From contig OX485805.1 in assembly GCA_950295325.1 (NCBI GenBank), forward strand, positions 20,323,501-20,387,500: a stretch of 64,000 nucleotides of DNA. The letters are read 5' to 3'. Positions 2,146-64,000 of the stretch are shown piece after piece (within the stretch, counting starts at the first letter, position 1; each line of letters begins with the position of its first letter). Source of the DNA: Polytrichum commune (taxonomy: Eukaryota; Streptophyta; Polytrichopsida; Polytrichales; Polytrichaceae). A program made the position numbers and the translations under genes. A model generated the notes under the pieces. That model worked only from the letters and a program-made list of their open reading frames with translations, did no database searches and was not told where the DNA came from.

Positions 2146-4204
2146 CAACTCACAGACCATGATATCTACATACTATATATAGATTTCAAAAATGCCTTTG
2201 GCTCAATTGACCATGCCAAACTCCTTGTTATCATGAAAGACTTTGGATACCCGCAGGATGCCGTAACCCTAGCAGGCAATATTTACTCACAATCCACCAG
2301 CACACTCGTAGGAGAATACTTTGGTAAAACCCAACCAATCCCCATACAAAGGGGAACCATCCAAGGAGACACACTGAGCCCCTACCTCTTTCGTATTTTT
2401 CTTGAACCGCTCCTCAGATGGCTACAACAAGGGAACAATGAATACTCCTTTAAAACCTCCAATACGAAAATAAGCTCAGCAGCTTATGCAGATGACCTAG
2501 CAATTCTGACTAATAAACTAACATCTCTCCAATCTCAATTGAATAAACTTGATCAATATTGCACATTGGCGGGAATGGGCCTAGGCATACCAAAATGTGC
2601 AGTCATTGGTTGCCCCAACAAATCAAAACTAAACCCACTAACCTTCAAAGCAAAACTACGAGAAACAAACATCAACTTTAGAAACCAATCAATACCCATA
2701 CTTAGCCAACATGAGCCATATGTCTACCTTGGAATTAGCCTAGTCCCATCATTACAATGAAATACACAAATACACATAACAACGATCAAACTAATAAAAC
2801 AATGTAAACTACTAATTACATGCCCAACTATCATGAAACAAAAAATACATATGGTAGATACAGTAATACGAGCATGTATCGCATATAGCTTTTACGCTGT
2901 CCCATACTCACTCCCAGCCATAAAGAAACTCGACAGAAAAGTAACTGCCCTACACAAAGCTATATGCGGCCTACCAAAGTGTATGTTGAACGCCGTTACA
3001 CAATTACCATACGATATGTTCGGCATGGAAGCATTCTCACTAAAAAATGCATACATCACATGCATAGGTGAACAACTCATTAAGGCCCTCGATGACAAAG
3101 GCAGATTAGGAAATATATATAACGGACTAGTAAAACACATACTTGCCAAATATGGAGGGGCACAAAATATAACGCGCATATCACACTACGACTGTATACG
3201 ATCCCCAATCACAAGGACTCTATTCCTACTTAAAACTAGTAGTGGAATTCACCTCAAGAGCACAATGGACAAATTCCCCCTCCTCCCCACACCACTAGAA
3301 ACACAATGGATGCGGCAAGCAAGAAACATACCAACAATAATTCCAGCACTATCCTTAAAATACCTACATAAACTAATATTACATAATATAACAAAAGTTA
3401 AACACATAACGCATCCCAACGGTACACCTAATGATGAATGATGAATTTAAACACTACTATAACCCACCCACAAAAATAGAAAAACTCGCATTAGACCAAG
3501 CTAGAACACTCTTTTGTAAAACCCCATGTCAAAGACAATGCCCAAATATGTGCTCAACACACATTACACCAAACACCTTAAAAAATGAATACTACATACA
3601 AAACCATAGCATACACACAAGATCGCGAGAACACAATAGACACCCTCTTCCCCTACCACCACTAGAATACCCAAAACCACACCCACACATCTTAAAAGAC
3701 CCCACACACTTCCCAATACACAACATACTTAATAACCGCCCAAGAACATACAAAGATAAATACAAAATCACAAAAAAATCACATCCTACTTATGCCAATG
3801 GACTTTCCCAAGCGAAGTAACTTACAACAAATGGCTCCCTCAAAGAGACATGTTTCCTTGGAACAACCAAAACGCCATAAATCATAATATCCTCTTATTA
3901 ACACAATACTATACTAGGAAACAACACCAACACTTTGTTGCCATACTACAATCAAACTTCAATAAAAAACAAATAAGAGACACCTGTTACATACCCCCAC
4001 CACAAACCATACCTCTTTGCCACATCCGCATTAATGAATGTAACCTAGAAAATGATATCGCCTACACACAAAACACTATTCAAACTCAATACGGAGTATA
4101 TCACATATATGATAACACTGGCAACCACTTGATCACCATTCCTGAACAAAGGCTAATATGACTACGGGAACAATACCAAAAAGCCGGTTGGACTTGGAAA
4201 CACT
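2146..4204 (+). pseudogene. 5'-truncated, broken non-LTR retrotransposon (LINE-type) ORF2
   Basis: The conceptual product is a reverse transcriptase that would copy element RNA at the insertion site. The frame opens at 2146. Motif A is visible as YIDFKNAFGSIDH (2176-2214), the template-switch region as IQRGTIQGDTLSPYLF, and the catalytic box as YADD (2485-2496). Downstream lies a thumb or connection region with a LPYDMFGMEAFSL stretch, then a Pro/His/Asn-rich C-terminus. Breaks are a TGA at 2758 where Trp fits, a frameshift near 3431-3441, another near 3793, and a TGA at 4159, again where Trp fits. The endonuclease part is absent and no poly-A tail is seen. The plus strand is strikingly rich in A and C. 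The last codons run into the 3' half of a hAT-like MITE. The family is non-LTR; the exact clade is not determined. Confidence 0.85.
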
Positions 4205-12094: not shown

Positions 12095-12320
12095 CAAGGA
12101 TCGGGGAGAACCGGCAGTTGGGTACAGATGAACCGGTTGAGTTTGAGAAATAACCGGTTGAAGTTCAAGACTGTAGGAAAATCACCAATCATTTTAGAGG
12201 AATTTATAGAATATACCCCAATTTAATAAAGGAAAACCGGAGGATGTCAACATGTAACCGGTTGGACTTGCAAACACTAGGATCTTAACCAACTATGCCC
12301 AAAAATCTCCCCGATCATTG
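12095..12320 (+). mobile_element. hAT-like MITE, full-length reference copy (226 bp, TSD TTGCAAAC)
   Basis: This copy is flanked by a perfect 8-bp duplication TTGCAAAC (12087-12094 and 12321-12328). The ends are CAAGGATCGGGGAGA and, inverted, CAATGATCGGGGAGA, a 15-bp terminal inverted repeat with one mismatch. An 8-bp target duplication plus CA-starting ends fit the hAT superfamily. The interior has three or four AACCGGTT-type palindromes and no transposase. It gives the coordinates used to recognise the other copies in the window. Confidence 0.88.
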
Positions 12321-19094: not shown

Positions 19095-19325
19095 CTATGA
19101 TCAAAGAGAACCAACAGTTAGTTACAAATGAACCGGTTGAGTTTGAAAAATAACCGGTTGAAATTCAAGACTGTAGGAGAATTACCGATCATGTTAGAGG
19201 AATCTATAGAAGAATATACCCCAATTTAATAAAGGAAAACCGAAGGATGTCAACGTGTAACTGGTGGACTTGCAAACACTAGGATCTCAACCGATTCTTA
19301 TGCCCAAAAATCTCCCCAGTCACTG
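19095..19325 (+). mobile_element. hAT-like MITE copy
   Basis: It aligns end to end with the 12095-12320 copy (ATGATCAAAGAGAACC at the left, AAATCTCCCCAGTCACTG at the right). The left repeat has decayed (GGGG to AAAG), and no clear 8-bp duplication remains, so this is an older copy. Confidence 0.75.
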
Positions 19326-24827: not shown

Positions 24828-25068
24828 CAGTGATTGGGGAGATTTTTGAACATAATCGGTCGAGATCTTAGTGTTTGCAAGTCCAACCGGTTACATGTTG
24901 ACATCCTCCGCCTTTCCTTTATTAAATTGGGGTATATTCTCCTATAAATTCCTCTAAAATGATCACTAATTTTCCTGCAGTCTCGAGCTTCAACCATTTA
25001 TTTCTCAAACTCAACCAGTTCATTTGTACTCCAGTAACTAACTGCCGGTTCTCCCCGATCATTCATTG
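24828..25068 (-). mobile_element. hAT-like MITE copy (241 bp, TSD TTAGAGAG)
   Basis: A perfect 8-bp duplication TTAGAGAG flanks it (24820-24827 and 25069-25076). In plus-strand reading it starts CAGTGATTGGGGAGA and ends CTCCCCGATCATTCATTG, an end carrying four extra bases. Its orientation is opposite to the 12095 copy. Confidence 0.85.
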
Positions 25069-26278: not shown

Positions 26279-26387
26279 CAGTGTTCGGGGAGGACCGGTG
26301 CTTAGTTGCAGATGAACCGGTTGAGTTTGAGAAAGAACCACCGGTTGAAGTTCAAGACTTCAAGAGAATTACCGATCACTTTAGAGG
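26279..26387 (+). mobile_element. hAT-like MITE, left half (split by the Gypsy element)
   Basis: It begins CAGTGTTCGGGGAGGACC and follows the family consensus to TTTAGAGG, where the LTR retrotransposon starts. The right half resumes with AAGGAATCTATAG at 37177. The left 8-bp flank is GATACGAA; its partner is not recognisable. Confidence 0.82.
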
Positions 26388-26930
26388 TGTCGTGTAAACT
26401 AAGATCGTTAAATACAACAGATCAAGTGTCGTCATCAACATCAATTAGCAAAATAAACATAGCAAACTAATATGCTAAACAACCACCTCTTCAAGATGAG
26501 GGTTTCTCTCTCCAAGCTCAAGAAACTAAGAAGTCTCCTTACAAGCTTAAGAAACTATGAAATTCACACACAAGAGTCAAGCTATCTCTCACTCCACAAA
26601 GGGAGAATCCAAGAGTGCAAGTGATGGAGAAAGAATGCAAAGGCTTTACTCATGATCTACTACACCATAGCCATAAGATAGCAACAACAAGCTCTCTCTC
26701 TCTCTCTCAAAACACACTCACAAGACTTGACTTGACAACAATGGCAAGTCAAAATGCCTTCCTCTCCACATAACCCCAATCCTATGTGAATTTCATTCAT
26801 GGAGTGGATGAACAACTAACTAGGACTCCCAATGGAGTCCATAATCCATCCAAACACACATGGACTCCTAATGGAGTCCATTTACTCCTAATTTGACGTG
26901 ACTTAGCCCCCGATGTCGCCTCACGTGACA
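26388..26930 (-). repeat. 3' LTR of the Gypsy element
   Basis: In plus-strand reading it starts TGTCGTGTAAAC and ends CACGTGACA, giving TG...CA tips. Positions 26496-26930 match the other LTR (36741-37176) almost base for base. The only difference I could see is the length of a CT tract near 26696-26711. The first 108 bases (26388-26495) have no counterpart in the other LTR. Confidence 0.8.
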
Positions 26931-26932
26931 GC

Positions 26933-27040
26933 TGTTGTGTAAACTAAGATCGTTAAACACAACAGATCGAATGTCGTCATCAACATCAATTAGCAAAATA
27001 AACATAGCAAACTAATATGCTAAACAACCACCTCTTCAAG
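26933..27040 (-). repeat. Extra copy of the LTR edge (108 bp direct repeat)
   Basis: This repeats 26388-26495 with only four transitions and lies between the LTR body and the polypurine tract. In element orientation it is an LTR-end segment placed upstream of the LTR, as if a partial second LTR had been added during reverse transcription or by recombination. Confidence 0.75.
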
Positions 27041-27050
27041 TGCCCCCCTA
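27041..27050 (-). promoter_or_regulatory. Polypurine tract (AGGGGGGCA on the minus strand)
   Basis: A G-rich tract directly inside the 3' LTR complex, at the position where Ty3/Gypsy elements prime plus-strand DNA synthesis. Confidence 0.55.
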
Positions 27051-27364
27051 GCAGATAAGGAGCCACTCCAATCGGCTAGGAACAAACACACTCATCGGTA
27101 GAGGTGTTGAACATGATGAAGTTGTTGCTACATCTGTACATATCCAATTGGGTAGTGGTAATCTAAGGAATTAAATTCATGGTTGAGAAAGTAACCCAAG
27201 AACTGTAGGCTGGGTGCAATGTGAGCCCCATTCTTAATCGCCTTCAACAACTTATGTTGAATTCTTTGATAACTCTCCCAATGTGATTTTCAATCCCATA
27301 AAACTTCCGACCAACTAGATAACAACTTCACCACAAAGACATGTGGCAAACATCCACAAAGTCC

Positions 27365-28720
27365 CTAATCATGACCATTAACGGACATGTAGTGAGAGGC
27401 TTTCCGACAACGAGGACAAACCCAATTGCCAGAAGGAAGAGTCAAAAGGGGAGGTGTCAAACATGCCATGTGCCATCCACGTTGACAATGATCGCACAAT
27501 AACATCGTTGCAGCTCCTTTCTTCTCTCCATACACATAACAAGGCAGACCCTGTGGTACAACCGCCAACTCGGGATGCACAGAGCCGTCGATGGGAAGGT
27601 GATATGGAGCACAATTCTTTGAATGCTCATGACATTCCCGTCCATCCTTGCCTTCAAGCAATAATATACCACTTGGTAAAACATCTTTTATCCGCAAAAT
27701 TGTGCGCCCAGCCTTGACATGCAATGTCGTAGGCGCCTCCCGTTGCAAGTAAACATAATCCCCCTTGGAAAATCTACAAACCTGAGGTCGATAAGCTTCA
27801 CTGCGGATCTGGACATACCGTAATGCATCACGATGTTGAGTTATGTTTAAGTTCTCCATGGCCAAAGGTATGGCCTTTTGAAAGAATTCTGCTCGGTCAT
27901 GAAGACATTGAGCCCAAACATCTGGATCATCCAAGTCTACCACAGGAGCCAATTTCTCTCGCACAGAGCTAGGTAAAATTGGTTCCCGTCCATACAAGAG
28001 TTGGTAAAGACTATAGGATGCCAAAGAGGCTTGCCTGCTGAAACGGTAACCCATTGCTATCCATGGTAACATTAAGTCCCAATCGCGATGGTTGCCATGA
28101 AACAACCCATACTTCCGCAAACCGCGCTTGACAGTCTGAACAACTCGTTCAGCTAAGCCATCTGTCTCAGGGTGATCTCTGGAAGTTGTTCGATGATCAA
28201 TCAAAGCCTTAATACACAAAGCCTCGAAAGATCCAAGAAATTCTCTCCCTTGATCCGTCAATAACTCTGCAGGTGCTCCAAACCGTGCCAAAACTCGATC
28301 AAGAAATGCCATAGCCACCAATTCTGAGGAATTTTGGGAAGAGCCACGAGTTCAATCCACTTACTAAAATGCTCCACCATCACAAGTACATACTTTGCCC
28401 CACGTGGAGTGATAGTAAGCGGTCCGGCAAAATCCAAAGACCAACGATATCCCAAGCCCATAATAGGTAAAGGCTGAAATTGAGGTGATAAAGTATTAAA
28501 ACTTGACCTGACCCGGTCACATACTTCACACCTAGAAACATAAGTGGCAACCTGTTGATACATCCCAGTCCACCAATATTGGTTGCGCAACATAGAGTGT
28601 GTCTTGCGCACTCCAAAATGTCCAAACTCCTCGTGCACTTGCCGCACTAAAGAAGCTCTTTGACCTGGCCTTGGAACGATGCGCCTCGTTCCGTTTGGCC
28701 ACACACGAAATAACAAGCCG
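27365..28720 (-). pseudogene. Gypsy integrase with C-terminal PHD finger
   Basis: The N-terminal zinc module is HEEFGHFG...CEVCDRV. The catalytic core shows SLDFAGPL, LLTDQGREF and GLAERVVQTVKRG, the DDE residues. A frameshift near 28320 separates the first Asp from the rest. After the core comes a KGDYVYLQREAP strand typical of the integrase C-terminal domain. The last 50 residues form a PHD-like zinc finger: PCYVYG, CDHC, HMAC, CPRC. The second ligand is Tyr (TAT) where the pattern wants Cys (TGT), one G-to-A change. PHD fingers commonly read the histone H3 tail, so it could steer integration the way chromodomains do; that is inference. A stop (TAG) at about 28725 separates this from the RNase H part. 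Confidence 0.85.
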
Positions 28721-28725
28721 TTTGC

Positions 28726-29460
28726 CTAACGAAACCTTGTTATTCGATGGCTAACTCTATCTCGCTCCATAGCAGATAGTCCAAGAAGAAATATCCCTTG
28801 TTGAAGTTTGTGCAAGACCGCCTGGTCTTCCCACACATCACTAACAATGACAGATTTATCAACCTCCTCATTTTGTTCTTCCATAAGGATCTCAGCAGCC
28901 CATCCCGACATCATTGTGAGATATGTGGCAGCATGCCAACCTGACACTGACTCACGATCATAATCTCCATGCCACCTGGCTCCAGTTAAATCCTCATCTG
29001 AAGGACTTGGATTGTGAGACAATCCGTCTGCATCCAAGTTGGCAATTCATGTTCGGTGAACAACTTCAAAGTCATATTCTTGAAGTAACAATGCCCACCT
29101 AGCAAGTTTCCCGGTGAGTTTATCTGATTCCATAAGTCATTTTAAAGACTGATGATCAGTCACCAAAGTAAATTTTTGCCCATACAAATAAGGTCGAAAA
29201 TGTGCAATGGCCCAAACGCCCCTAAGGCCTCGCCTTCATAAGAAGAATAATTAGATTCAGCATTATAATTGCTTCTAGATGCATAAGACACCACATATTC
29301 TTTTCCCTCTTCATCTTTCTGTGTCAATACCGCTACCAACCCCACTGCACTCCAATCCGTGTGCAATTGAAAAACTCTAGACACATCTGGGCGTCGAAGC
29401 ACTGGCGCTGAACCGAGCCTCTGCTTCAATGTATCAAATGCTTGTTGTTATTCCCGACTC
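28726..29460 (-). pseudogene. Gypsy RNase H and connection region
   Basis: LRRPDVSRVFQLHTDWSAVG carries the first catalytic Asp, YEGEALG the Glu, and VTDHQSLK a further Asp in a second frame. A one-base shift lies near 29215, and further stops follow SLK and VVHRT. The sense resumes at LDADGLSHNPS, the typical ADALSR-like end of the domain, and then a linker to the integrase. It would degrade the RNA strand during reverse transcription. The start is fused to the RT end in intact relatives; here a foreign LTR intervenes. Confidence 0.8.
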
Positions 29461-29566
29461 CAAATCCATGGTTGGTCTTTCCCCGTGAGAATGGTGAGAG
29501 GTTTGGCAATCAAACTAAAATTTTTGACAAACCTTATATAATAATTTGCCAATCCTAGAAATGCCC

Positions 29567-30512
29567 TGTCGCAACCCTTGCTAGGTCCCTTAACAATCTT
29601 GCCAATTTTCATTTCTAGCAAAGATTACGAGCGCTAACCCTTCGCATTCCGCCATGCTAATGGATAGCTCCTCTTACCCCAAACCAATAGTTCATAGGAG
29701 GGAACCAACCCTCCTACTTTGCTTTCGGGACTCACCCCTTAATCGGTAACCCATTTCCCCAATGTGGACTTCCATCCATGGAAGTCCAATCCTATGTTGA
29801 TCATCGCGTTGCCGGAGCAACACTACAACAACCCGAACCATACTAGGCAACTATGGCCTCACAATAGGCCAAAGCCCATGGAGGCCTTGCCATTCGGCCT
29901 CGGGTGGGTGAGGCCACACCACCTCACCCATATAAGCCTCTAGGACTTTACACAGGGCCCCTACCCCACCGTGAACCAACCTCTTGTCTCTCTACCAAGA
30001 GTTGGGGCCAAGTGGACATTCTCCCTTAGCCGCTGGGCTAAGAAGCCTCTAGCAGCTTCAGACCATCATAACTTCCTTGTATGATGTCTTCATCTACGTT
30101 TCACGTAGATGCCGATGGACTCCTCACTTGCCCCATTTGGGCAAGTTATGAGGACGTTATGCCTCTTTGAACCTTGGCAGTCCCGGGAGTCACTCCCAGG
30201 CACTGCTGCACCAGGGCGCTGTCCTGGGACAGCGCCCCACTCAAATGGCCATAACTCCTAGCTCACACCTCCGATTGAGGTGTTCTTGAGCATTCTAGAA
30301 TCACCACGCCATGAGCTACGCATAGCTCATGGCCTTACCCTCATGCTTCCTAGTCTCAGTGGGTGGGAGGCGTTCCCAACGCCCGGGGCCCTCACCCACA
30401 CTAGGATCACTTGGGCCCTCTCACCAATGGCGCCACAAGTCCCGGGTGTCACTCCGGGATCCCCCTTGTGCCCATGGTGTTTCGGGCATTCCTTATGGAG
30501 AGGTGCGCGACA
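29567..30512 (+). mobile_element. Solo LTR of a second retrotransposon family (946 bp, TSD TGCCC)
   Basis: The tips are TGTCGCAACC and GTGCGCGACA, so TG...CA with a short inverted repeat. TGCCC at 29562-29566 and 30513-30517 is a perfect 5-bp duplication. It interrupts the Gypsy element between RT and RNase H. A second copy of the same LTR lies at 45253-46232. It is GC-richer than its surroundings and contains no protein domain. Confidence 0.85.
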
Positions 30513-31444
30513 TGCCCGAAGTCGTGGTACATCACTAGGTGCGGGAATTTTATGCAAAACATCCACCTTCGCCTGTTGCACACCAAGATCGTCAGGAACA
30601 ATCATGTGGCCTAAATAAGGCAATTGATCATAGAAAACTTACATTTGCCATGATGTAAATGGAGTCCCCACCATTGTAATCGTTCAAATACCGCTTGCAA
30701 ATGTCTCACATGATCATATGGACTATTACTAAAGATGATACCATCATCAATGTAACATGTAGCAAACGGTAAACCAGCCAATAATTGGTCCATCACCCGC
30801 TGAAATTCAGTTGGTGCATTTTTGATACCAAATTGCAAAAATTTCCAATGATAAAGTTCATCCTTGCCATCTTTATCAATTTCCCAAAATGCGGTCTTCA
30901 CCCGATCACCCAACAACAAAGGTAATTGATAATAACCAGACCTCAAATCCACAGTGCTGAAGATTCTAGCAAATCCCAGTGCATCAAATAACTCCTCTGG
31001 TATCGGTATTGGATATCGATCCGACTTGGTCTTGCTGTTGACTGAACGATAATCACCACACATCCGTTTTTCTGTCCAGTTGCCAAAGATATATTTCTTT
31101 GAAGGCATAACCGTGGCACAAGCATACTCTCCATTGAAGAGTTCAATCAATTCCGCTGCCAATAATTCTTGACATCGAGTTTGAACACCCAACCTTTCAG
31201 ATGTACTAAGTCTGTACGGCCGTCTGAAAATAAGATGGTCGTCCTCGAGTTGAATACGAACATGTTTATCTTTATATGCTTCAAGATCATGAAGACTAAA
31301 GGCAAAACAATTATGGTAAGAGCGAATAAATGCCCGTACCTTTCGTGTTTCGACACCAGTAAGTTTTGGCCCCACTTCAATTGGCCAATCGTCAAACTCC
31401 GTGATTTCCTTCTTCATAGAAGGATTGCCACTTGGTGCCAGCAC
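30513..31444 (-). pseudogene. Gypsy reverse transcriptase
   Basis: An open stretch of about 277 residues (31444-30611) reads through RT fingers and palm: CGDYRSVNSKTKSDRYPIP, FSTVDLRSGYYQLPL with the first catalytic Asp, FGIKNAPTEFQRVMD, and CYIDDGIIFS with the YIDD active site near 30745. This is the best-preserved part of the polyprotein. A frameshift and TAG near 30611 precede YLGHMIVPDDLGVQQAK, the family's thumb, before the LTR insertion. It is in a different frame from the methyltransferase upstream. Confidence 0.88.
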
Positions 31445-31789
31445 AGCTTGTGATTGCTAGTCCGTGAAGAGGGCAACACCTTTGCCCCCATCATCTGCAC
31501 TTGAATCCAAATGCTTATCTTCTCCACTACAATCAGTTTGTGTAGTTACATAGCTACCCACATATGAAGTGTCACCAAGAAATAGAAGTGGAAACATTTT
31601 ATGTGCCTCTAACTTCCTAAAATCTTAGGACAAAACCGTAAAAACACGTTGGGCTCGAAGCTCTTCCGCAACATGTTGTTTCAAAGAAAATAATCACTTG
31701 GTGTCATTGACCTCCATGTGATCCTTGGATTGCAGCTCCATTGCCCCCTGACCATTGTTCTCTGCCCTCAGATGAAGCAATTGGTCATT

Positions 31790-32800
31790 CATACGTTATT
31801 GAGCAGCAAGACAAATTCCAATTATCCACACAATGCTATTGAGATCCATAGCTTGTCCCAATAGGAAACGTCTCTGACCAACCTGAAGCCCATGAACAGC
31901 CGTGGTGCCTGTAGGAAAACCCATGGCTCATTCCCGCTCATTTGCCGTAGGCTCATCATGAGTTTGGGATTTTTGAATTCCAAACCATGTCTGGTCCACG
32001 AGATCGAAATGCAAAAGACAGTGAATATGTCACAAAAGTAGGTAGTGCACCTCTCGGAATTCCCACCTTGTAAATTAATGCAAATGGCAAGGTGTCATCC
32101 TTGGTAACTGCCAAAGAAATACGATGAGCATCTAAAATGTCATCCACCTTGCGATTCATAAGGCGGGGAATGCGGGCGATCGCCGCTGAAAGCACCTGAG
32201 GTGATACCAAATTGGTCTAAAACCAACGAGGCCGATGAGCAAAGAATCCCAAGGATGCAGCATCCAGAAATGTTGGGGTACCCAAAATTTGGTTAATGTA
32301 CTCACCATCCTTCACCACTTTGTGCCGTGTATCACCCAATAATGGCACATTTTCAAAAATGTACCCTGGCGGATTTGATTGGTGGGTAAACCACCATTGT
32401 GTCAATCGCATCAAATCCGCGAACAAACTAAACCTATGATCATCCAAACCCTGGCCAGTTCCTGCCCGTGAATGGCCTTGACAAGGTCATCCTGCAATAA
32501 TTAAATCCACGTGGCCCAATCTTCTCAAATCCTCATCACTAATCATAGTGACATCTGGAGGAAGTTGACCACAACATCCAAGAATCGCAGAGGCTGACAA
32601 TTGTGCAGGGTACCTCAACAACAATTGTTGAATGTGGTGTCGGACGGCTCTGTTGGCTGCATATCCAATATCCACATGAATATATCGCATAACTGTAATC
32701 CTAGCCTCCAACACTGCCGCCAAACCTGTGCCAATGCCCCAAAGATTTCTACAAGGACAATAGCTTCAGGTGGTGGTTGCCAACGAATGGATTGAGCAAA
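31790..32800 (-). pseudogene. Cytosine-5 DNA methyltransferase domain (DNMT3-like) inside the Gypsy polyprotein
   Basis: This would transfer a methyl group from S-adenosylmethionine to cytosine. Motifs occur in canonical order. Motif I is VEIFG then GTGLAAVLEAR, with one G missing from a run at 32737-32740. Next comes RYIHVDIGYAANRAV. Motif IV is DLIIAG, stop, PCQGHSRAGTGQG, with the catalytic Cys intact at 32478-32486. Motif VI is YIFENVP (Glu-Asn-Val at 32346-32354), and motif VIII is AHRPRWF. After a short target-recognition region come motif IX, MGFPTGTTAV, and motif X, LLGQAMDLN. The ENV...AHR-R-F and ER---GFP layout resembles DNMT3/DRM more than MET1 or CMT. Breaks are the motif-I frameshift, TGA at 32487, TAG at 32217, a frameshift near 31960, and TGA before motif IX. 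It lies between protease and RT, uninterrupted by any host-gene intron. Confidence 0.88.
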
Positions 32801-33819
32801 AGAAAATGAGGATGACGTTGGAGGTGTCTCTCCAAGCCCAAATCCGCTATAATATGTCGACAATGGTCGGATAACTCCTTAGGAGTACGCCATGGTGGAG
32901 GTGGATCCTTGAAATGTTGAGCAAAAATTTGTAAAGATGGCAAAATTTGTTGTTCTACTGCATTACAAGCGTAGTCCAATGTTTCCTCCAACAAAACTGG
33001 AGCACAAGGTAAATCCGCAACTGAACCGCTGCAACCAAACATTGCCTCCGCAACCATAGTCATAGAAGTAGCTGCAAATGCTACAGGAATAAATACCTTC
33101 ATGCCATCTCCAGAAGACCATCCCGGTCTAATCCATGCCTCTTCAGTCCAATTATCCAAACCAAAGCCAAGTGGATAAAGAGCTTGCTGACCAACAAGTA
33201 TATCATAGTTGGTAGCATTAGTAACAACACACTTCATTGACAAATGAGTGTAGGTAGGTCATGCCCCCACATTAAAAATCAAATGTAGAGGTGTCTTGGT
33301 GTAACCTGTTGCACGTTCAGTGCCCCCTACTGAAGTCACAATTGTGAATGGACAAGGATTTAAGTTTGCTGGCGTCAATCCAAGACTGTCAGCAAGTCCT
33401 TTGCCAATCATAACCAGTTGAGCACCGGAATCCATCATAACTCTCAGTGGTGTAGCACGAATAGTAGGTATATCCGCGCGTGAAACGACAAACAAAGATT
33501 TATCGTTCATCAGCCGTAGAACTCCAGGTTGCAAATTATGCCGCTCGCGAGCAGGCCTTGCAGAAATATCTGCAAGATATGCCGCTCCCGCTGCATAATT
33601 CGAAAAGGACGTGTCCACTGCTGAAATTGTTGATGGAGGAATATTAGTGTGCTTACCAAAAGCAATGATCGCCGCATCCGCAAGGCTCGCTCGCAAATTG
33701 GCTAAGTCCTCCACCTCCTCAGCCACAGGTACGTCAACAACAGCTTGGGATACTTGAAGGGATGGCAAATCCGCCTTTCCTTCTAACATTTTCCCAACTA
33801 AATGGAAAACTTCAGCAGG
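32801..33819 (-). pseudogene. Gypsy aspartic protease and linker to the methyltransferase
   Basis: The protease carries VMMDSGAQLVMIG, with the DSG active site of retropepsins, and ends in YDILVGQQALYPLGFGLD, typical of Gypsy proteases. A TGA at 33259-33261 interrupts it. After the protease, about 100 residues (FIPVAFAATSM to PKELSDHC) have no family I know, and then the methyltransferase starts after a frameshift near 32860. Its role would be cleavage of the polyprotein. Confidence 0.78.
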
Positions 33820-35553
33820 CTAGAAATCCGGAGCCATCAACTCCGAACCTGAGAAAATTGGCATATGGAGAATCTTATATGCCAATGCCTGCGTAACATC
33901 CCTCAAGATGGAATTCCCATCTCTCAAAGTTACAGGGTCTTTAGCCCCAACAACAGTGGTGTCTACCAATCCAAATGAGAGAGGTAAACGTGCTTGACCA
34001 ATTTGATCCGCTGGTCCGGCATGGCGAGGATGTGACACCTTGTTGCTACCACCACTTGTAGAAGCCACCGCATTTGCCAATGTTTGTGATCGAGTAGAAG
34101 CCGCAGCCACCACCTCTCCAGATGCCCCAAACATATACATGTCCGAACCCGTGGTGCCACCACCCGCATGCGGCTCAGAAATTTGAGCAAAAGATGCAGA
34201 AAATTTGAGCTTTTGCTCAAGCTCTGCCACCTTAGCCTCAAGACTCTGCTCCCTTGGAGATTTGCCAGTGACATATCTGGCAGGCCGCATCTCATGATGA
34301 AGTTGGAAACAATGATCCACATCGTGATTAGTGTCACTACAATGGTTACATTTCAATTGTCTCTTCTTAGAATTGTCCCCTGTCTTTACTGGTTCTATCT
34401 TTTGTTTTAATTTTCCCAAAGGCTGGATTTTCTTCTTCTTAGGACAATTGGGATCATTCTTCGAATGACCAACTTCTCCACAACCCCAACAATGCAAAAT
34501 CTTTTGCTCCTTAACGGTTTGAGTCTCAGCTAAACTACTAGTAGCTGTGACAATTCTTCTTGATTTCGTACTCTCTGTCATCCAAGATACCATGTCTATG
34601 GCATCGTGTTGACAGAGAGCCCGATCACATCTCTCAACCACGGCAAACGCTTGTGCAAGCGTAGCTCTGCCTTCGTAGTCGAGGATAATCCGAGGGGATG
34701 CCAACTCAAGTAGCCGCTTGTCAATCTTAGACAAAAAAATTTTGACAAGCTGACTCTCAGCAAAAACACCTCCCGACTCAACAGCAAAGCGTGCAAGTCG
34801 CGTATACATGGTCCGTGGAGTGTCATCCTTCTCTCGGCGGAAATCTTGAATGTGCTGCATCTGGTCTCGCCGAAATCCACCATACTCCAACTCTAAATGT
34901 ACGACAAATTCAGCAAGGGGATTAAATGGAGGTGGTGGACCAACAGCCGTCAATGCTGCCTGTGTAGCACGTGCCATCTGTGAAAGGGTAGCCGTGCTAC
35001 TGCCAGCCACTATTGGCCCAAGTGCCAGTTCTTGGTCCTTAGACTCCTCTGGTGGATCCTCCTCCTTTAAGGTGGGTGGAGCTAAGGTGGCAATCGCCCC
35101 ATCCTTAAGGGCTGAAATAAGCTCAACCCGGGCCTCCCAATACTGCTCCACCCCCCGAAGTTGTCGCTGATGACCCTCTGTCCAGCGTTTGTAAGTTTGG
35201 AATGCCTCATGCTCCAAATGCTAAGGCAGAAGTTCAAAGGCATACCAATCATTGAAATTGGAAGACCTTTGGCGTTTCTCCTTAATCCAGGTACGAAACT
35301 GGAGTTTCCAATTGGGCAAGGAAATGCCCCCAGCTCGACCTGAGAACCGATCACGCACTGAACCGTGGTGATCGTCGTCCATTTCGTCGAACGTGCCAAC
35401 ACTCCAAATCCGAAGCCTACTAGTAGTGTCCAACGCCGAAATAGGCTCAAAAGCCTCGTTGGTATCTACCTCTGGCTCAAGATTTGTGGTATGCACGTCC
35501 TCCAAGTAATCTGGTGATGGAGATCGATAATATCGGCTCCTAGTTTGCACCAT
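33820..35553 (-). pseudogene. Gypsy Gag with two zinc knuckles
   Basis: The start is MVQTRSRYYRSP at 35553. A TAG at 35221 and a TAG at 33820 interrupt one continuous frame; both fit a CAG-to-TAG change. The middle contains the retrotransposon capsid-like region (FVVHLELEYGG, TMYTRLARFAV, LVKIFLSKIDKRLLELA). Two knuckles follow: CWGCGEVGH (C-x2-C-x4-H-x6-C) and CNHCSDTNHDVDHC (C-x2-C-x4-H-x4-C). It would coat the element RNA. Gag and protease share a frame, so the parent element probably encoded one polyprotein. Confidence 0.85.
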
Positions 35554-35718
35554 AAAATAATCACTTGAGTACCGGCAACTATCTACAAGGTAATGGTAAC
35601 CTGCACCTGTTGCGGGCTATCTAAATAGCAATCCCTTGCCAAATGCCAAGTGTTTATTTAGGCCCCCATAATTCCAAAATTGTGCAAAGGTTTGAGATTG
35701 GTAATTAAAATTAAAAAA

Positions 35719-36120
35719 ATCAGCGTTGAAAATGTTAATTTCTAAGGTGATTATGGACTCCAATCAACAAACTAGTTGCACCAATGGACTCCTAGGAAGA
35801 TTTCACACAAATTAGGCTCAAATTTTACTCCGTTCGGAGTTAATTTGCTCCCAAAAACAAAAATCAGCGTTGAAAATGTTAATTTCCAAGGTGATTATGG
35901 ACTCCAATCAACAAACTAATTGCACCAATGGACTCCTAGGAAGATTTCACACAAATTAGGCTCAAATTTCACTCCGTTCGGAGTTAATTTGCTCCCAAAA
36001 ACAAAAATCAGCGTTGAAATTAATAATTTCAGCAATGATTTTGAATTCCAATCAACAATCCAATTACACCATTGGATTCCTTGGCAAATTTCACTCCAAT
36101 CGGAGCTAGTATGCCCCCAA
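35719..36120 (-). repeat. 144-bp tandem repeat in the Gypsy 5' leader (about 2.8 copies)
   Basis: Units starting ATCAGCGTTGAAAATG begin at 35719, 35863 and 36007, so the period is exactly 144 bp. Units 1 and 2 are nearly identical; unit 3 is more diverged. The repeat lies between the 5' LTR and gag, where packaging or promoter repeats are found in other retroelements. Confidence 0.85.
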
Positions 36121-36735
36121 ATTTGAACCTCAAAGTTTGTGAGAATTAAATGCCAAGTTTGAAAGGTGAAAGTAAAAATGTAAAAATTTTAAAAAAATGT
36201 AAAAAAAAAGTGAAAAGTAATTGTAAAACAAAGTTGGTAAAAGTAATGTTGGAAAACAAAAACAAAAACAAAAAATAAAAATTTTAAAAAACAAAACCTT
36301 ACCTGCCTCTGCCAGGGCCTGGCTGGCACCCGCCCGCCCATGGGGCCCGGCTGACGCCCGGCCTGCCAAGAGCTTCAGAGCTCTAGGAGGGTCCGGTGAG
36401 CTCCGGATCCGTCCGGAGCTCAATAAAAAATTAAAAACAAGTCGGATATTTTTTTTTTGTTTGTTTTAAAAAAGAATTAAACTTTGCTTCCACAATTTGC
36501 AAGCAAGAAAGATGTGACTTGAGATTCCATTTGGTCTCAAGATTCAACCATCAACAATTGAAGAAAACACAAAGAGACACCAAAAGAGAAATGCGGAGAT
36601 TTCTCTCAAAATCTTCTTGAGGGTTGCAAGGAATTGCAAACTAAGCTTTTATACACTTGTATCACTCATTTGCTCTTACTACTGGGCTATTCTAGCTCCG
36701 AAATACAACCAAAAATGCAAAAATAAGCCAATTGT
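36121..36735 (-). other. Rest of the Gypsy leader
   Basis: An A-rich stretch is followed by a GC-rich island (about 36305-36420) with GCCCGGC and CTCCGGA palindromes, then AT-rich sequence up to the LTR. I could not identify a tRNA primer-binding site next to the LTR. Confidence 0.45.
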
Positions 36736-37176
36736 TGTCAAGTATGAGGGTTTCTCTCTCCAAGCTCAAGAAACTAAGAAGTCTCCTTACAAGCTTAAGA
36801 AACTATGAAATTCACACACAAGAGTCAAGCTATCTCTCACTCCACAAAGGGAGAATCCAAGAGTGCAAGTGATGGAGAAAGAATGCAAAGGCTTTACTCA
36901 TGATCTACTACACCATAGCCATAAGATAGCAACAACAAGCTCTCTCTCTCTCTCAAAACACACTCACAAGACTTGACTTGACAACAATGGCAAGTCAAAA
37001 TGCCTTCCTCTCCACATAACCCCAATCCTATGTGAATTTCATTCATGGAGTGGATGAACAACTAACTAGGACTCCCAATGGAGTCCATAATCCATCCAAA
37101 CACACATGGACTCCTAATGGAGTCCATTTACTCCTAATTTGACGTGACTTAGCCCCCGATGTCGCCTCACGTGACA
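36736..37176 (-). repeat. 5' LTR of the Gypsy element
   Basis: In plus-strand reading it starts TGTCAAGTATGAGGG and ends CACGTGACA, with TGTCA/TGACA inverted tips. It matches 26496-26930 except for one dinucleotide unit in a CT tract, and it lacks the 108-bp edge segment found twice at the other end. Confidence 0.82.
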
Positions 37177-37308
37177 AAGGAATCTATAGTAGAATATACC
37201 TCAAATGAATAAAGCAACATTGGAAGAGGCCAACATGTAACCGGTTGGTTCTAGAATCACTAGGATCTTGACCAACTATGTCCAAAAAATTCTTGGGCAC
37301 CGGTTACA
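37177..37308 (+). mobile_element. hAT-like MITE, right half
   Basis: It continues the MITE interrupted at 26387: AAGGAATCTATAG, then ACATGTAACCGGTTGG, then CACTAGGATCTTGACC. The terminal repeat itself is eroded. Confidence 0.78.
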
Positions 37309-45252: not shown

Positions 45253-46232
45253 TGTCGCAACCCTTGCTAGCACCCCTTAACAATCTTGACCATTTTCAAA
45301 TTCTAGCAAGGGTCACAAGCGCTAACCCTTCGCAATCTGCCATGCAAATGGTTAACTCCTCATAGCGCGGACCTCTTTAGCTCATAGGTGGGGGACCAAC
45401 CCTCCTTTACATTCAGGACTCTCCCCTTAATCGGTAGCCCATGATTAGATGTGGATTTTTATTCATGGAAGTCCAATCTTAAGTTGATCATCGCGTTGCC
45501 GGAGCAACAATACAACAACTGGAACTATACTAGGCAGGCTATGCCCCTTCATTGGGCCAACATCCGTGGAGGCCGTATTGTTCAGCTTTGAGTGGGTTCG
45601 GTCGGCCACGCCGCCTCACCCATATAAGTCTATAGGATTTTTGGCAAGACCCCTATTCCACCATAAAAAAAAACATTTTGTCTCTCTCCTAAGAGTTGGG
45701 GCCAAGTAGACATTTTCCCAAAGACGTTGGGCATGGAAGCCCCCAGCAAATTCAGACCACCATAACTTTGTCATGTGATCTTTGCTTCTATTAGGCAACA
45801 ACTTCATCGTCATCTATTCTTCATGTAGATGCCAAATGACTCCTCACTTGCTCATTCAAGCAAGTATTGAGGAAGTTATGCTGTTTCTAACCTCGGCAGT
45901 CTCAGGAGCCACTCCTAGGCCATTGTTGTCCGAGGACGCTATCCCGGGACAACGCCCCACTCAAATTGCCATATCTCCTAGCTCACACCTCCGATTGAGG
46001 CATTCTTGAGCATTTTACAATCCGGACATCATAAGCTACTCATAGCTCATGGCCTTACTCTTGTGACTCCTAGTCTCTGTGGGTGGGAGGCGTTCCCATT
46101 GCCCGAAGCCCTCACCCACATTAGGATCCCTTGGGCCCTCTCACCAATGATGCCACAAGTCCCGGGTGTCACTCCAGGGTCCCCCTTGTGCCCATGGTGT
46201 TTCGGGCACTCCTCATGGAGAGGTGTGCGACA
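45253..46232 (+). mobile_element. Second copy of the TGTCGC LTR (980 bp)
   Basis: It matches 29567-30512 along its length with many substitutions and small insertions, from TGTCGCAACCCTTGCTAG to GGTGTGCGACA. The flanks GCGGT and TCGAC do not match, and no primer-binding site or polypurine tract is seen beside it. It is older than the copy inside the Gypsy element. Confidence 0.78.
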
Positions 46233-47040
46233 TCGACAAAGGAAAACCGGGGTGTGGCGGAGTGGTAGGTGGGATGCCAGGTGGTAGTAGATCAAAGCAC
46301 GTAATGGAGCACGTGAATGAAGGAGCAATGGAACATGTAACTAGAGCAACAGTGGAGTAGCTAATTGGTTACCAACAAAGTGGAGATGGAGAGCACAAGA
46401 GCGATGCAACTAATACAACAAAGTCGGGGATGAAACGTGAGACAATACGTTCAAGAGCAAAGCAATCATAGTGACAGGGTGCAAGTGGGTGTGACAATGA
46501 AGATTGCTAGCAGGAGCAACAATGGAGTTGGTAATCGGACAATGGGTAGCAACATAAGAGGAGGGACGAAGCACACAAAAGTGGGGATGATGCATGAAGG
46601 GGCCAACAACAACTACAACAAAGTTGGGATGAACCGCAAGGCGTCATGTACAATGATAGAGCAAGGTGGCAAGGAGGGAAAGACAATGATTGAAATGAAG
46701 GAAACGATGGGGTGCAATTAAAGGTTAGGATTTGTGTAGAGTCACCAAGCAAGCATTCTCAGATTCGGCAAGAGCATGTGAAGAGCGTGAGGAAGCCAAA
46801 GACAAAGAAGCAGCTGAAGCCGAGGGAGGAAGATGGAGCTCCCATCCCCTCAAGAACACACTATGGCTATGAGAACGAGGAGCAAGACTTGGGAACATTG
46901 GTTAGGTTGCAAGAACAAAGAACAAGACTTGAGAACATCAGTAAAGTACAGGAATGAGGAGTGAGACTCAGGATCGCTAGTAGGGCCATGAGAACAAAAG
47001 CTCATGATCGGGAACACACCAAGGCTTGGGAACAAGGGTA
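46233..47040 (+). repeat. Purine-rich degenerate repeats, no gene
   Basis: GGAGCAATGG-, GGAACATTGG- and AACAAGACTTGGGAAC-type phrases recur irregularly, giving long open frames by composition. I do not regard them as coding. Confidence 0.4.
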
Positions 47041-54532: not shown

Positions 54533-54778
54533 CAGTGCCCGGCCGGGAAGCTTTTGGCTTTGGGCATAGTCACTCAAGATCCATGTCATTCTAAATCCAA
54601 CCGATTACATGTTGACATTATCTTCCGGTTTTGCTTTCATTGAATTGAGGTATGTTCTTCCATAGATTCCTCTAAAACGATCGATAATTCTCCTGAACTC
54701 TCTGACTTCAACTAGTTATTTCTCAAACTCAACCAGTTCATCTGTAACTATATAACTGTCAGTTTCCCCCGGACACTG
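54533..54778 (-). mobile_element. hAT-like MITE copy (246 bp, TSD ATTCCAAA)
   Basis: A perfect 8-bp duplication ATTCCAAA lies at 54525-54532 and 54779-54786. The tips are CAGTGCCCGGCCGGGAAG and CCCCGGACACTG. The clean duplication confirms the family boundaries independently of the 12095 copy. Confidence 0.87.
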
Positions 54779-57528: not shown

Positions 57529-57754
57529 CTATGATCGGGGAGAACTGGCAGTTAGTTATAGATCAACCATTTGAGTTTGAGAAATAGCCGGTTGAAGTTC
57601 AAGATTGTAGGAAAATTACCGATCATTTTAGAGGAATCTATCAAATATACCCCAATTTAATAAAGGAAAACCGAAGGATGTCAACATGTAACCGGTTGGA
57701 CTTGCAAACACTAGGATCTCCACCGATTATGCCCAAAAATCTCCCCGGTCACTG
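57529..57754 (+). mobile_element. hAT-like MITE copy (226 bp)
   Basis: Full-length and close to consensus (CTATGATCGGGGAGAACTGG left; ATCTCCCCGGTCACTG right). The 8-bp flanks do not match, although the ends are well preserved. Confidence 0.8.
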
Positions 57755-58392
57755 GTCCCCTTTGTGATCTAAGGGTCACTTCACAGACAAGCCAAGAGCT
57801 GTGACCATGAAATTGTGAGAGCCCAAAAGAAAGTGTGTAAAGGCCGTCCCAACACACCTCCAAAATCATGTAGTTTGGTCACGGACTCTCAAGTGTAATG
57901 TGAAGTCATATGTGACCGGACCCTCAATCAAATGTCATTTTAATGAATTTCTATTCATGTGGGTCTTCACACACGATGAAATGGAATAAATCAACGGTTG
58001 TGAACGTTCGGTTGGGCCATGATCTCCCGGTTTTGTGTTAAGCCTACCTCCAAGAGGTGGTTTTTGAAAATAATCCAAGTGACCATGAAACATGATTCAT
58101 TCGATGCCATTAGGAATCCATGTAGACTTTACATCCATCATGCATTCACATACTCCGTCGGTCCCTCAAGCGTAGTGTGAAGCGAACTTAGGGCCTGCCC
58201 ACACCTGCTGGTGGGCGAGGCAGTGGAAGGCCCCCACCAGCAGGGAGGGACTTTTCGTCCAAAAAGTTGACCCACCAGCGACTGGGCGCAAGGCCCTTAA
58301 TATTTGGCCGTTCGCAGGTAGCCCGGGTAAGTTTTCGGGTTTAGGACCAGAAACTTACTAAAGTGCGCCAGAGTGACAACGGCCGTTTGAGT

Positions 58393-63449: not shown

Positions 63450-64000
63450 CCCTTTTGTCCCATGTTGATTCCGGATTATGCAAAGATTGCAGTACCTATC
63501 ATGCAACTGCTTAAGAAGGATTGTAAGTTTGAGTGGACACAGGCATGCCAACATGCATTCGAAGAGTTGAGGTCAAAGCTTAGCACCTATCCGGTATTGA
63601 GGCCACCAGATTGGGGAAAGCCATCTCATATGTTTTGTGATGCTAGTGCGGTGGCTGTCGGTAGTGCATTGTGTAAGTCGACAGGAGACAAAGGGAAGGA
63701 ATAACATGTGGCTTATGCGAGCCGACAGTTAACCTCTGCAGAGAAAAATTATTCTACCACTGAAAGGGAGTACTTGGCCATGGTCTTCTCAGTTAAGAAA
63801 TTCCGCCATCATCTCACGTGTAATCCAGTGGTTTTCTTCGTCGATCACATGACAATTAAATTTTTAGTCAACAAGGTGGAGTTAAGTGGAAGGTTGGCTA
63901 GGTGGATCCTACTCTTAGAAGAGTTCGACTACACCGTGGAGTATAAGCCCGGGCGTATGCACTTGCAAGCGGACCACTTATCAAGGTTGTCCGATGAGGT
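63450..64000 (+). pseudogene. Ty3/Gypsy RT-thumb and RNase H fragment (runs off the window)
   Basis: The frame reads IPDYAKIAVPIMQLLKKD (RT thumb or connection), then MFCDASAVAVGSALC with the first RNase H Asp, YASRQLTSAEKNYSTTERE with the Glu, VVFFVDHMTIKFLVNK with the next Asp, and PGRMHLQADHLSRLS at the end. One in-frame TAA lies at 63702. The upstream RT palm is missing. It belongs to a different Gypsy lineage from the methyltransferase-bearing element (the RNase H sequences differ clearly). An integrase may follow beyond 64000. Confidence 0.85.

What the first reader, a model, noticed from the sequence alone, without database searches (positions are those of the whole stretch)
31790..32800. 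A DNMT3-like cytosine methyltransferase embedded in a Ty3/Gypsy polyprotein
Motifs I, IV (catalytic PCQ), VI (ENV), VIII, IX and X occur in order between protease and reverse transcriptase, on the same strand and in near-continuous reading. Retrotransposon-borne DNMTs have, as I recall, been reported in dinoflagellates and charophyte algae (de Mendoza and colleagues). This looks like a further case in a streptophyte, with the domain placed between PR and RT. The element could methylate its own cDNA or host targets, to hide or to tune silencing. The DNMT3-like ENV...AHR-R-F layout suggests an origin from a host de novo enzyme.
Basis: partly seen in the sequence, partly recalled or inferred. Interest (0 to 1): 0.95.

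Follow-up and report, generated by a model that had tools for sequence, protein, structure and literature searches.

The report
Methylase-carrying retrotransposon in a land plant
A jumping element present in well over a hundred copies in this plant genome carries its own DNA-methylating enzyme, a rarely reported arrangement that could show how mobile DNA uses the host's own silencing mark.

Summary
A broken Ty3/Gypsy-type element (26388-37176, minus strand) carries a cytosine-5 methyltransferase between protease and reverse transcriptase (about 31775-32836). The window copy has stops and frame breaks, but the domain belongs to the element: 123 places score in this 408-Mb genome, 18 in open frames of at least 1356 aa, and relatives occur in Sphagnum, Calypogeia, Marchantia paleacea and a desert-crust contig. 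By profile and fold the enzyme is DNMT3-class, yet motif IV is PCQ, not PCN; a host-DNMT3 origin is unresolved. The kind is known: KnitGypsy-Dnmt3 of Klebsormidium (2018), also with DIRS-like repeats. New here: (1) DNMT ends ORF1, before a UAG stop followed by CAR YYA, the tobacco-mosaic-virus leaky context, in 30 of 31 sequences examined, so the enzyme should be made in Gag amounts; (2) the integrase ends in a PHD finger; (3) copies are A-body-B-GC-A-B or A-body-B with perfect 4-bp target duplications in the 10 of 10 copies fetched whole, as if a DDE integrase opened cDNA circles at a palindrome inside the LTR. That the enzyme methylates the element's own cDNA is inferred.

The parts
26388..37176 (-). 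Whole integrated element (TGTCAC...ACGACA ends), 5' end at 37176
   Evidence: copies of the host repeat in the window span the joined flanks: 7 places with 4 bp taken out, each scoring best at 4 (8 places with none taken out)
37177..37180 (.). Target duplication AAGG at the 5' end; the partner GAGG is at 26384-26387 (one mismatch)
   Evidence: perfect 4-bp duplications in 10 of 10 other copies
36744..37176 (-). Repeat A1 (U5-side part of the LTR), followed by PBS-like ACTTGACAA at 36735-36743
   Evidence: 0 substitutions against A2 over 438 aligned columns that reach a few bases past both copies, with small indels; boundaries
35715..36094 (.). 144-bp tandem repeat, 2.6 copies, in the leader
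31460..35616 (-). ORF1 Gag-PR-DNMT, broken in this copy (stops at 35223, 33822, 33261, 32489, 32219, 31930, 31798, 31696, 31627; frame breaks near 32835, 32735, 31971)
   Evidence: tblastn with the open ORF1 of L018; open, 1386 aa in nine and 1366 aa in one of the 10 copies chosen for a long ORF1
34309..34494 (-). Gag zinc knuckles
   Evidence: zinc-finger matches below their cut-offs and the C-x2-C...H...C pattern in the translation
33313..33453 (-). Aspartic protease, DSGA motif
   Evidence: PF13650 E 4.2e-5
31775..32836 (-). Cytosine-5 methyltransferase domain, DNMT3 class, motif IV PCQ
31457..31459 (-). Conserved in-frame UAG between DNMT and RT, context UAG CAA UCA
   Evidence: UAG in 29 of 29 other genome copies covering the place, CAR YYA after it in 28 of 29, and in L001
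27368..31456 (-). ORF2 RT-RNaseH-IN-PHD, broken in this copy (stops at 29450, 29139, 29049, 28728; frame breaks near 30638, 29229, 28336)
30611..31456 (-). Reverse transcriptase piece
   Evidence: PF00078 E 2.4e-25
29565..30513 (.). Nested insertion in ORF2 with TGTCGC...GCGACA ends and TGCCC duplication, probably a solo LTR of another element
   Evidence: alignment gap against L001, 78% identity to 45253-46233, ends read by eye
27700..28725 (-). Integrase (zinc domain and rve core); low end approximate
   Evidence: PF17921, PF00665
27407..27523 (-). PHD finger at the end of the integrase frame
   Evidence: PF00628 E 3.1e-9; the best solved relatives (60 shown of 127) match in this stretch and are chromatin proteins by name
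27043..27049 (-). Polypurine tract AGGGGGG
   Evidence: same place in other copies
26933..27040 (-). Repeat B1 (start of U3)
   Evidence: 104 of 108 identical to B2
26931..26932 (-). GC between B1 and A2; in many other copies the centre of the palindrome GACAGCTGTC (here with one change)
   Evidence: 218 junction-like sites in the genome with up to one mismatch, against 15 for the reversed pattern
26496..26930 (-). Repeat A2
26388..26495 (-). Repeat B2, 3' end of the element

Best explanation
This is one decayed copy of an abundant, recently active Ty3/Gypsy-type element whose Gag-protease precursor ends in a DNMT3-class cytosine methyltransferase. Shown: the domain order, its presence in both subfamilies of this genome and in relatives from other hosts, selection on its sequence, the conserved UAG-CAR-YYA stop after it, the PHD-tailed integrase, the split repeats and the 4-bp target duplications. 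Inferred: most ribosomes stop at the UAG and make Gag-PR-DNMT; a minority read through and add RT-RNaseH-IN-PHD, so the methyltransferase enters the particle in Gag rather than Pol amounts. There it methylates the newly made cDNA before or while it forms circles. The integrase then opens the circle at the palindrome GACA-GC-TGTC inside the LTR and inserts it with a 4-bp stagger, the PHD finger reading histone H3 at the target. A copy that arrives already methylated would look like host heterochromatic DNA, avoid sensing of foreign cDNA and start out quiet, which lowers its cost to the host.
For: Domain in 123 scored places, at least one of them a host DRM exon, and in 9 of 10 RT copies looked at separately. 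Between subfamilies dN 0.31 against dS 2.2 in DNMT (omega 0.14). PCQ and ENV kept in the 7 retro rows compared. DNMT3A is the best solved relative of the family profile (E 2.4e-14); the 50 Foldseek hits printed, of 161 with E up to 0.001, are all DNMT3 entries. UAG in 29 of 29 genome copies covering the place and CAR YYA in 28 of 29 (L059 has CAGTTG; L054 does not cover it), plus the window and L001. The 9-nt block is 89-100% identical between three lineages whose adjacent 30 nt are 47-60% identical, and in L032 and L001 ORF2 has no Met before residue 117. CAR YYA after UAG is reported essential for readthrough in TMV (PMC2754532, passages). 4-bp target duplications in 10 of 10. Exact U5|U3-type join in 19 of 24 long-form copies.
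Against: No methylation, expression or protein data. The KnitGypsy-Dnmt3 DNMT gave no methylation in yeast, a result its authors call inconclusive (PMC5890265 section 10). Within subfamily I the DNMT is under weaker constraint (pN/pS 0.69, 9 copies) than RT (0.08, 6 copies). C-to-T changes in the window copy are only mildly raised at CG (7.8%, against 4.6% CHG and 5.6% CHH), so a methylation footprint is weak. With a single sequence as query the bacterial HaeIII enzyme (E 0.0019) ranks before DNMT3A (0.014). In L018 ORF2 has a Met at residue 14, so re-initiation is not excluded there. A-body-B copies could also come from B1 x B2 recombination.
Confidence: 0.5

Rival explanations
1. The enzyme acts mainly on host chromatin or on RNA, not on the element's cDNA: Gag-level DNMT released from particles de novo methylates host loci or competing elements, or binds and modifies the element RNA.
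For: The domain evolves faster than RT, RNaseH and IN (60-66% against 88-92% protein identity between three lineages), as a host-facing factor might. RNA methylation was floated for the LINE type by de Mendoza et al..
Against: The class is DNA-type DNMT3; DNMT2-like tRNA enzymes score far lower (best 1.5e-4 against 2.4e-14). Position inside the particle precursor favours acting on packaged nucleic acid.
Confidence: 0.25
2. The DNMT is a passenger or structural domain with little catalytic role (for example nucleic-acid binding next to Gag), kept for folding.
For: pN/pS 0.69 within subfamily I; 13 of the 123 scored places have a stop inside.
Against: Catalytic motifs kept across lineages with near-saturated synonymous sites.
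Confidence: 0.15
3. The split repeats arise by a DIRS-like reverse-transcription route using the B1-GC-A2 stretch as an internal complementary region, not by opening of a 2-LTR circle; A-body-B copies are later recombinants.
For: The A-body-B-A-B order is that of DIRS elements; de Mendoza et al. describe SymbioDIRS repeats as A-coding region-B-A... and liken the KnitGypsy repeats to DIRS.
Against: A DDE integrase with clean 4-bp duplications and repeat edges exactly next to the PPT and the PBS-like motif fit standard LTR replication plus circle opening. Pfam shows no tyrosine recombinase in the two open frames of L001.
Confidence: 0.3
4. A bacterial or phage methylase gene inserted here secondarily.
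For: PCQ motif as in four phage enzymes; phage methylases reach 28% identity over about half the query (98 records) and phage models match the fold (best E 5.2e-13); trees do not exclude a phage-like source.
Against: The domain is in both subfamilies and has relatives in several bryophyte genera; DNMT next to RT is the norm. As a local event it is excluded; as an ancient source it remains open.
Confidence: 0.05

Closest known systems
KnitGypsy-Dnmt3 of Klebsormidium nitens (de Mendoza et al. 2018, PMC5890265; passages and sections 10-11 seen)
   Same: LTR Gypsy domains, DNMT3-class domain in the Pol polyprotein ORF, DIRS-like repeat order, purifying selection. A K. nitens integrase with the same PHD tail exists (P0136, 54% identity), though not shown to be from that element.
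   Different: Here a land-plant host with more than 100 copies; DNMT upstream of a conserved leaky-type UAG; integration ends and target duplications defined. I did not obtain the K. nitens DNMT sequence, so clade membership is untested, and its stop context and integrase tail are unknown to me.
SymbioDIRS-Dnmt3 (Symbiodinium, same paper)
   Same: DNMT3-class domain in a retroelement with A-body-B-A-type repeats; its DNMT methylates CG in yeast.
   Different: Tyrosine recombinase instead of DDE integrase; dinoflagellate host.
DNMT3A/DNMT3B
   Same: Best profile and fold match.
   Different: About 20% identity in the structural alignment; PCQ instead of PCN.
Chromodomain-bearing Gypsy elements (chromoviruses; recalled)
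   Same: Histone-reader module after the integrase.
   Different: PHD finger instead of chromodomain.

Membership tests
Ty3/Gypsy-type LTR elements | PR-RT-RNaseH-IN order | tested here: met
Ty3/Gypsy-type LTR elements | Placement in an RT tree | not tested
Ty3/Gypsy-type LTR elements | Two complete LTRs as outermost units | tested here: not met
   order is A-body-B-GC-A-B or A-body-B
DIRS-type elements | Split direct repeats A-body-B-A-B | tested here: met
   8 of 10 long-ORF copies (2 are A-body-B); of 20 further 3' ends 16 show B-A-B, 2 B alone, one is the host DRM locus and one shows no repeat
DIRS-type elements | Tyrosine recombinase, no target duplication (recalled) | tested here: not met
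   DDE integrase; perfect 4-bp duplications in 10 of 10
C5 DNA methyltransferase superfamily (PF00145) | Pfam gathering score and PC / ENV motifs | tested here: met
DNMT3 class | Best profile and fold match among solved families | tested here: met
   family profile: DNMT3A 2.4e-14, DRM 1.9e-6, HaeIII 1.3e-5, HhaI 6.7e-5; no chain named DNMT1 or CMT up to E 10. A single sequence ranks HaeIII first
DNMT3 class | Motif IV PCN (recalled; seen in the DNMT3A/B/C and host DRM rows) | tested here: not met
   PCQ in the 7 retro rows compared
DNMT3 class | Nests within eukaryotic DNMT3 in a tree | tested here: inconclusive
   retro+eukaryote clade not rejected (p-AU 0.38), retro+phage side support 48/78
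KnitGypsy-Dnmt3 | DNMT clade shared with the K. nitens element | not testable with these tools
   no K. nitens DNMT is named among the rows shown (one search lists 120 of 286)
Type I leaky stops | UAG followed by CAR YYA | tested here: met
   30 of 31 sequences: 28 of 29 genome copies, window, L001; definition from PMC2754532 passages
Type I leaky stops | Readthrough measured | not testable with these tools
   needs a reporter assay

The most novel reading that the evidence does not exclude
A Gypsy-type element that has converged on the DIRS way of life with a DDE integrase: its cDNA is closed into 1- and 2-LTR circles, methylated by a Gag-stoichiometric DNMT, and opened by integrase at a palindrome inside the LTR, so that element copies arrive premethylated from circles rather than linear ends.
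Probability: 0.35. Interest if true: 0.85.

Novelty: new variant of a known kind. Interest (0 to 1): 0.64.

Why it matters
Retroelement-borne DNMTs were reported for one charophyte and for dinoflagellates. An abundant, recently active family in a land plant, with relatives in three bryophyte genera, gives a system in which to ask what a mobile element gains by methylating DNA. The Gag-side position makes a concrete prediction (enzyme packaged at high copy). The 4-bp target duplications at TGTCAC...ACGACA with two repeat arrangements offer a simple test of whether a DDE integrase can use circles, a question raised long ago for retroviruses (recalled). The leaky-stop block can be assayed with existing plant reporters.

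Tried and rejected
Ordinary LTRs: rejected, because B2 lies outside A2 and the empty-site comparison puts the ends at TGTCAC and ACGACA. Local insertion of a methylase: rejected. Bacterial residence of L001 and P0040 (filed as bacterial MAGs): rejected for L001, which carries a whole LTR-type element; P0040 is judged only by its 68% identity to P0001. Three scans of IMG/VR contigs found no relative. Defective master lineage as explanation of the window copy's lesions: of the 7 window stops covered in L065 and in L066, none and one are shared, so they are mostly private; both do share the end of the RT frame. Host DNMT3 gene: human DNMT3A as query returned 147 matches of 299 candidates, the best being retro copies, plus a DRM exon; a PCN pattern search did not complete, so presence or absence of a host DNMT3 is not known. 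NCBIfam gave only a Dcm superfamily match below its cut-off (3 of 4 proteins). RT phylogeny, expression and methylation: not done. Nearest-copy DNA search with the DNMT stretch did not complete. Host name: not given; seven large contigs and 408 Mb suggest a moss, which is recalled and weak.

Papers: PMC5890265 passages plus sections 10 and 11; PMC12344493, PMC2754532, PMC9033089 passages; all others only in search listings. Nine literature searches listed no title or start of abstract reporting bryophyte DNMT retroelements, a leaky stop in such elements or PHD-tailed Gypsy integrases in plants; subscription papers are mostly missing from that library.

Full report
What is in the window. Pfam finds a protease (PF13650), RT (PF00078), integrase (PF17921, PF00665) and a PHD finger (PF00628) around a PF00145 match of 29.3 bits in a single 89-aa open piece. 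Searched as one broken protein with its stops read as residues, the DNMT piece finds 39 proteins; P0001 is 88% identical and open through most of the domain.

Boundaries. Two repeats without a substitution in 438 aligned columns and a 108-bp repeat at 104 of 108 are arranged A1-body-B1-GC-A2-B2. The element sits in a copy of a repeat that recurs in the window. Joined flanks align across the join to 7 other places of that repeat when 4 bp are taken out, each scoring better than with 0, 3 or 5 (8 places span with none taken out). This fixes the ends at 26388 and 37176, with a duplication GAGG/AAGG that has one mismatch.

The genome. The window lies in a 408-Mb assembly. PF00145 gives 123 scored places out of 353 first-look candidates; 18 lie in open frames of at least 1356 aa and 13 have a stop inside (counted from the rows). 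At least one place is not the element: C2:4703606 is an exon of a host DRM gene with permuted motifs. The B-GC-A junction pattern occurs 218 times with up to one mismatch, against 15 for the reversed pattern.

Copies. I fetched 10 of the 18 copies with the longest frames. ORF1 is 1386 aa in nine and 1366 aa in L032; ORF2 is open over its whole length in 7 of 10. All 10 have perfect 4-bp target duplications at TGTCAC and ACGACA. Eight are A-body-B-GC-A-B; L014 and L016 are A-body-B. Of 20 further 3' ends that I picked down the ranking, 16 show the B-A-B form, some with extra, shortened or interrupted repeats (L048, L051, L052); L034 and L039 show B alone; L047 is the DRM locus and L043 shows no repeat. 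In the eight long-form copies A1 and A2 differ by 0 positions in six, 1 in L020 and 2 in L024, and B1 and B2 by 0 in seven and 2 in L024.

Two subfamilies. L018 and L032 share 91-92% of RT and IN residues but 60% in DNMT, and the A and B repeats of their groups are only partly alignable. Both keep the same layout. A third relative, L001, is a 9285-bp contig whose ends overlap by 127 bp, filed under a cyanobacterial MAG; it carries both ORFs open (ORF1 split by the contig ends), the purine tract and the same ACGACA-GC-TGTCAC junction. I read it as a eukaryotic contaminant; that its sample is desert crust is my reading of its isolate label.

The stop between DNMT and RT. In L001 the two ORFs are in the same frame, separated by one TAG. 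TAG stands there in the window, in L001 and in 29 of 29 genome copies that cover the place (18 of them already; L054 does not cover it). CAR YYA follows in the window, in L001 and in 28 of the 29; L059 has CAGTTG. CAATCA, CAATTA, CAGTTA and CAACCA are all seen. Between L018, L032 and L001 the 9-nt block is 89-100% identical while the adjacent 30 nt are 47-60%; the first Met of ORF2 is residue 14 in L018 but 117 in L032 and L001. PMC2754532 states that CAR YYA after UAG was identified as essential for readthrough in TMV (passages). So the stop in the window at 31457-31459 is not decay, and the DNMT belongs to the Gag side.

Is the domain part of the family? RT of the window returns 138 scored places of 1464 candidates. 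I took eight RT places with no DNMT row beside them, compared by eye, plus two whose RT match ends like the window's: 9 of 10 (7 of the 8 and both others) have the DNMT directly upstream; L067 shows only part of the following linker in its 1.2 kb. All scored RT places are at least 78% identical, so a more distant DNMT-less sister is not excluded. Related DNMT proteins come from named records of Sphagnum troendelagicum, S. tenellum, Calypogeia fissa and Marchantia paleacea; of these only P0101 of S. tenellum was seen to join the post-protease region to the DNMT. Integrases ending in PHD occur also in K. nitens, Calypogeia, Marchantia polymorpha, Sphagnum fallax and Tetrabaena.

What class of enzyme. 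A profile of 25 family members against solved structures gives DNMT3A 2.4e-14, DNMT3B 5.8e-13, DRM-type 1.9e-6, HaeIII 1.3e-5, HhaI 6.7e-5, DNMT2-type 1.5e-4 and no chain named DNMT1 or CMT up to E 10. With a single sequence the order is reversed (HaeIII 0.0019, DNMT3A 0.014), a result against a confident class call. An AlphaFold model of P0040 (mean pLDDT 69) finds DNMT3 entries in all 50 printed places of 161 with E up to 0.001; TM by target is 0.72-0.79 for catalytic-domain chains. Among viral models the best is a phage methylase, E 5.2e-13. Motif IV is PCQ in all seven retro rows, as in four phage enzymes, against PCN in DNMT3A/B/C and host DRM. Trees hold the retro clade together (100/100 and 98/99) but do not place it: a eukaryotic clade with 83/82 in the first tree falls to 48/78 in the second, and retro with eukaryotes, with DNMT3 alone or with phages are all allowed. 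Phage methylases reach 28% identity over about half the query.

Selection and age. Between L018 and L032 DNMT has dN 0.31 and dS 2.2 (near saturation; omega 0.14), RT omega 0.05, IN 0.03. Within subfamily I, mean pN/pS is 0.69 for DNMT over nine copies and 0.08 for RT over six, so constraint on the DNMT is weaker or more variable. The window copy is 93.4-93.9% identical to the nine subfamily I copies over 7.5-7.6 kb; at 7216 positions where the copies agree it has 192 C-to-T, 69 T-to-C and 106 other differences, C-to-T mildly enriched at CG. Its A repeats are identical although its ORFs carry 13 stops, about six frame breaks and a nested insertion. Gene conversion between A1 and A2, or mobilisation in trans of an already broken copy, would do; only one of seven stops is shared with L066 and none with L065.

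How it may work. B starts directly after the polypurine tract and A ends directly before a conserved ACTTGRCAA, as U3 and U5 do. The A2|B2 join is exact in 11 of 13 subfamily I and 8 of 11 subfamily II long-form copies; two more join at the same place with a substitution (L050, L053) and three differ (L029, L048, L052). That is the join of a 2-LTR circle. The integrated ends lie at the palindrome inside the LTR. Opening a 2-LTR circle there gives A-body-B-GC-A-B; opening a 1-LTR circle gives A-body-B; both occur. This is inference: B1 x B2 recombination can also yield the short form, and a DIRS-type copying route can yield the long one. The function of the DNMT is likewise inferred; methylation of the element's own cDNA is the authors' suggestion for the Symbiodinium DIRS elements (PMC5890265 section 11), strengthened here by the Gag-side position.

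What is known. KnitGypsy-Dnmt3 is the same kind of thing: Gypsy domains, DIRS-like repeats, DNMT3. PMC12344493 restates retrotransposon DNMT3s in streptophytes and dinoflagellates (passages). I therefore file this as a new variant of a known kind. New, as far as the nine searches listed under Tried and rejected show, are the presence in bryophytes, the leaky-type stop, the PHD tail in these elements and the defined integration ends.

Noticed in passing
29565-30513: Insertion in the element with TGTCGC...GCGACA ends and TGCCC duplication; 78% identical to 45253-46233; probably a solo LTR.
   Followed up: partly
24828-25063, 12096-12320, 19097-19325, 54559-54771, 57531-57757: Dispersed repeat of about 230 bp, many copies in the window; one copy is the target of the element.
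   Followed up: partly
26391-26426 and 26936-26971: B1 and B2 of the window copy differ at 4 of 108 positions, all transitions, while A1 and A2 have no substitution in 438 columns.
   Followed up: partly
2146-3441: Two consecutive plus-strand open frames with non-LTR reverse transcriptase look (YADD, GTIQGD), judged by eye.
   Followed up: no
63465-63986: Plus-strand piece 40% identical to the RT-RNaseH of the element, another Gypsy remnant.
   Followed up: no
L051: 3' end with extra repeat copies (B-A'-A-B-GC-B), possibly a trace of multimeric intermediates.
   Followed up: no
L001: Plant or algal retroelement contig filed in a cyanobacterial MAG; P0040 is likewise filed under an Obscuribacterales MAG.
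   Followed up: partly
L064: Host DRM gene with permuted methylase motifs and PCN.
   Followed up: yes
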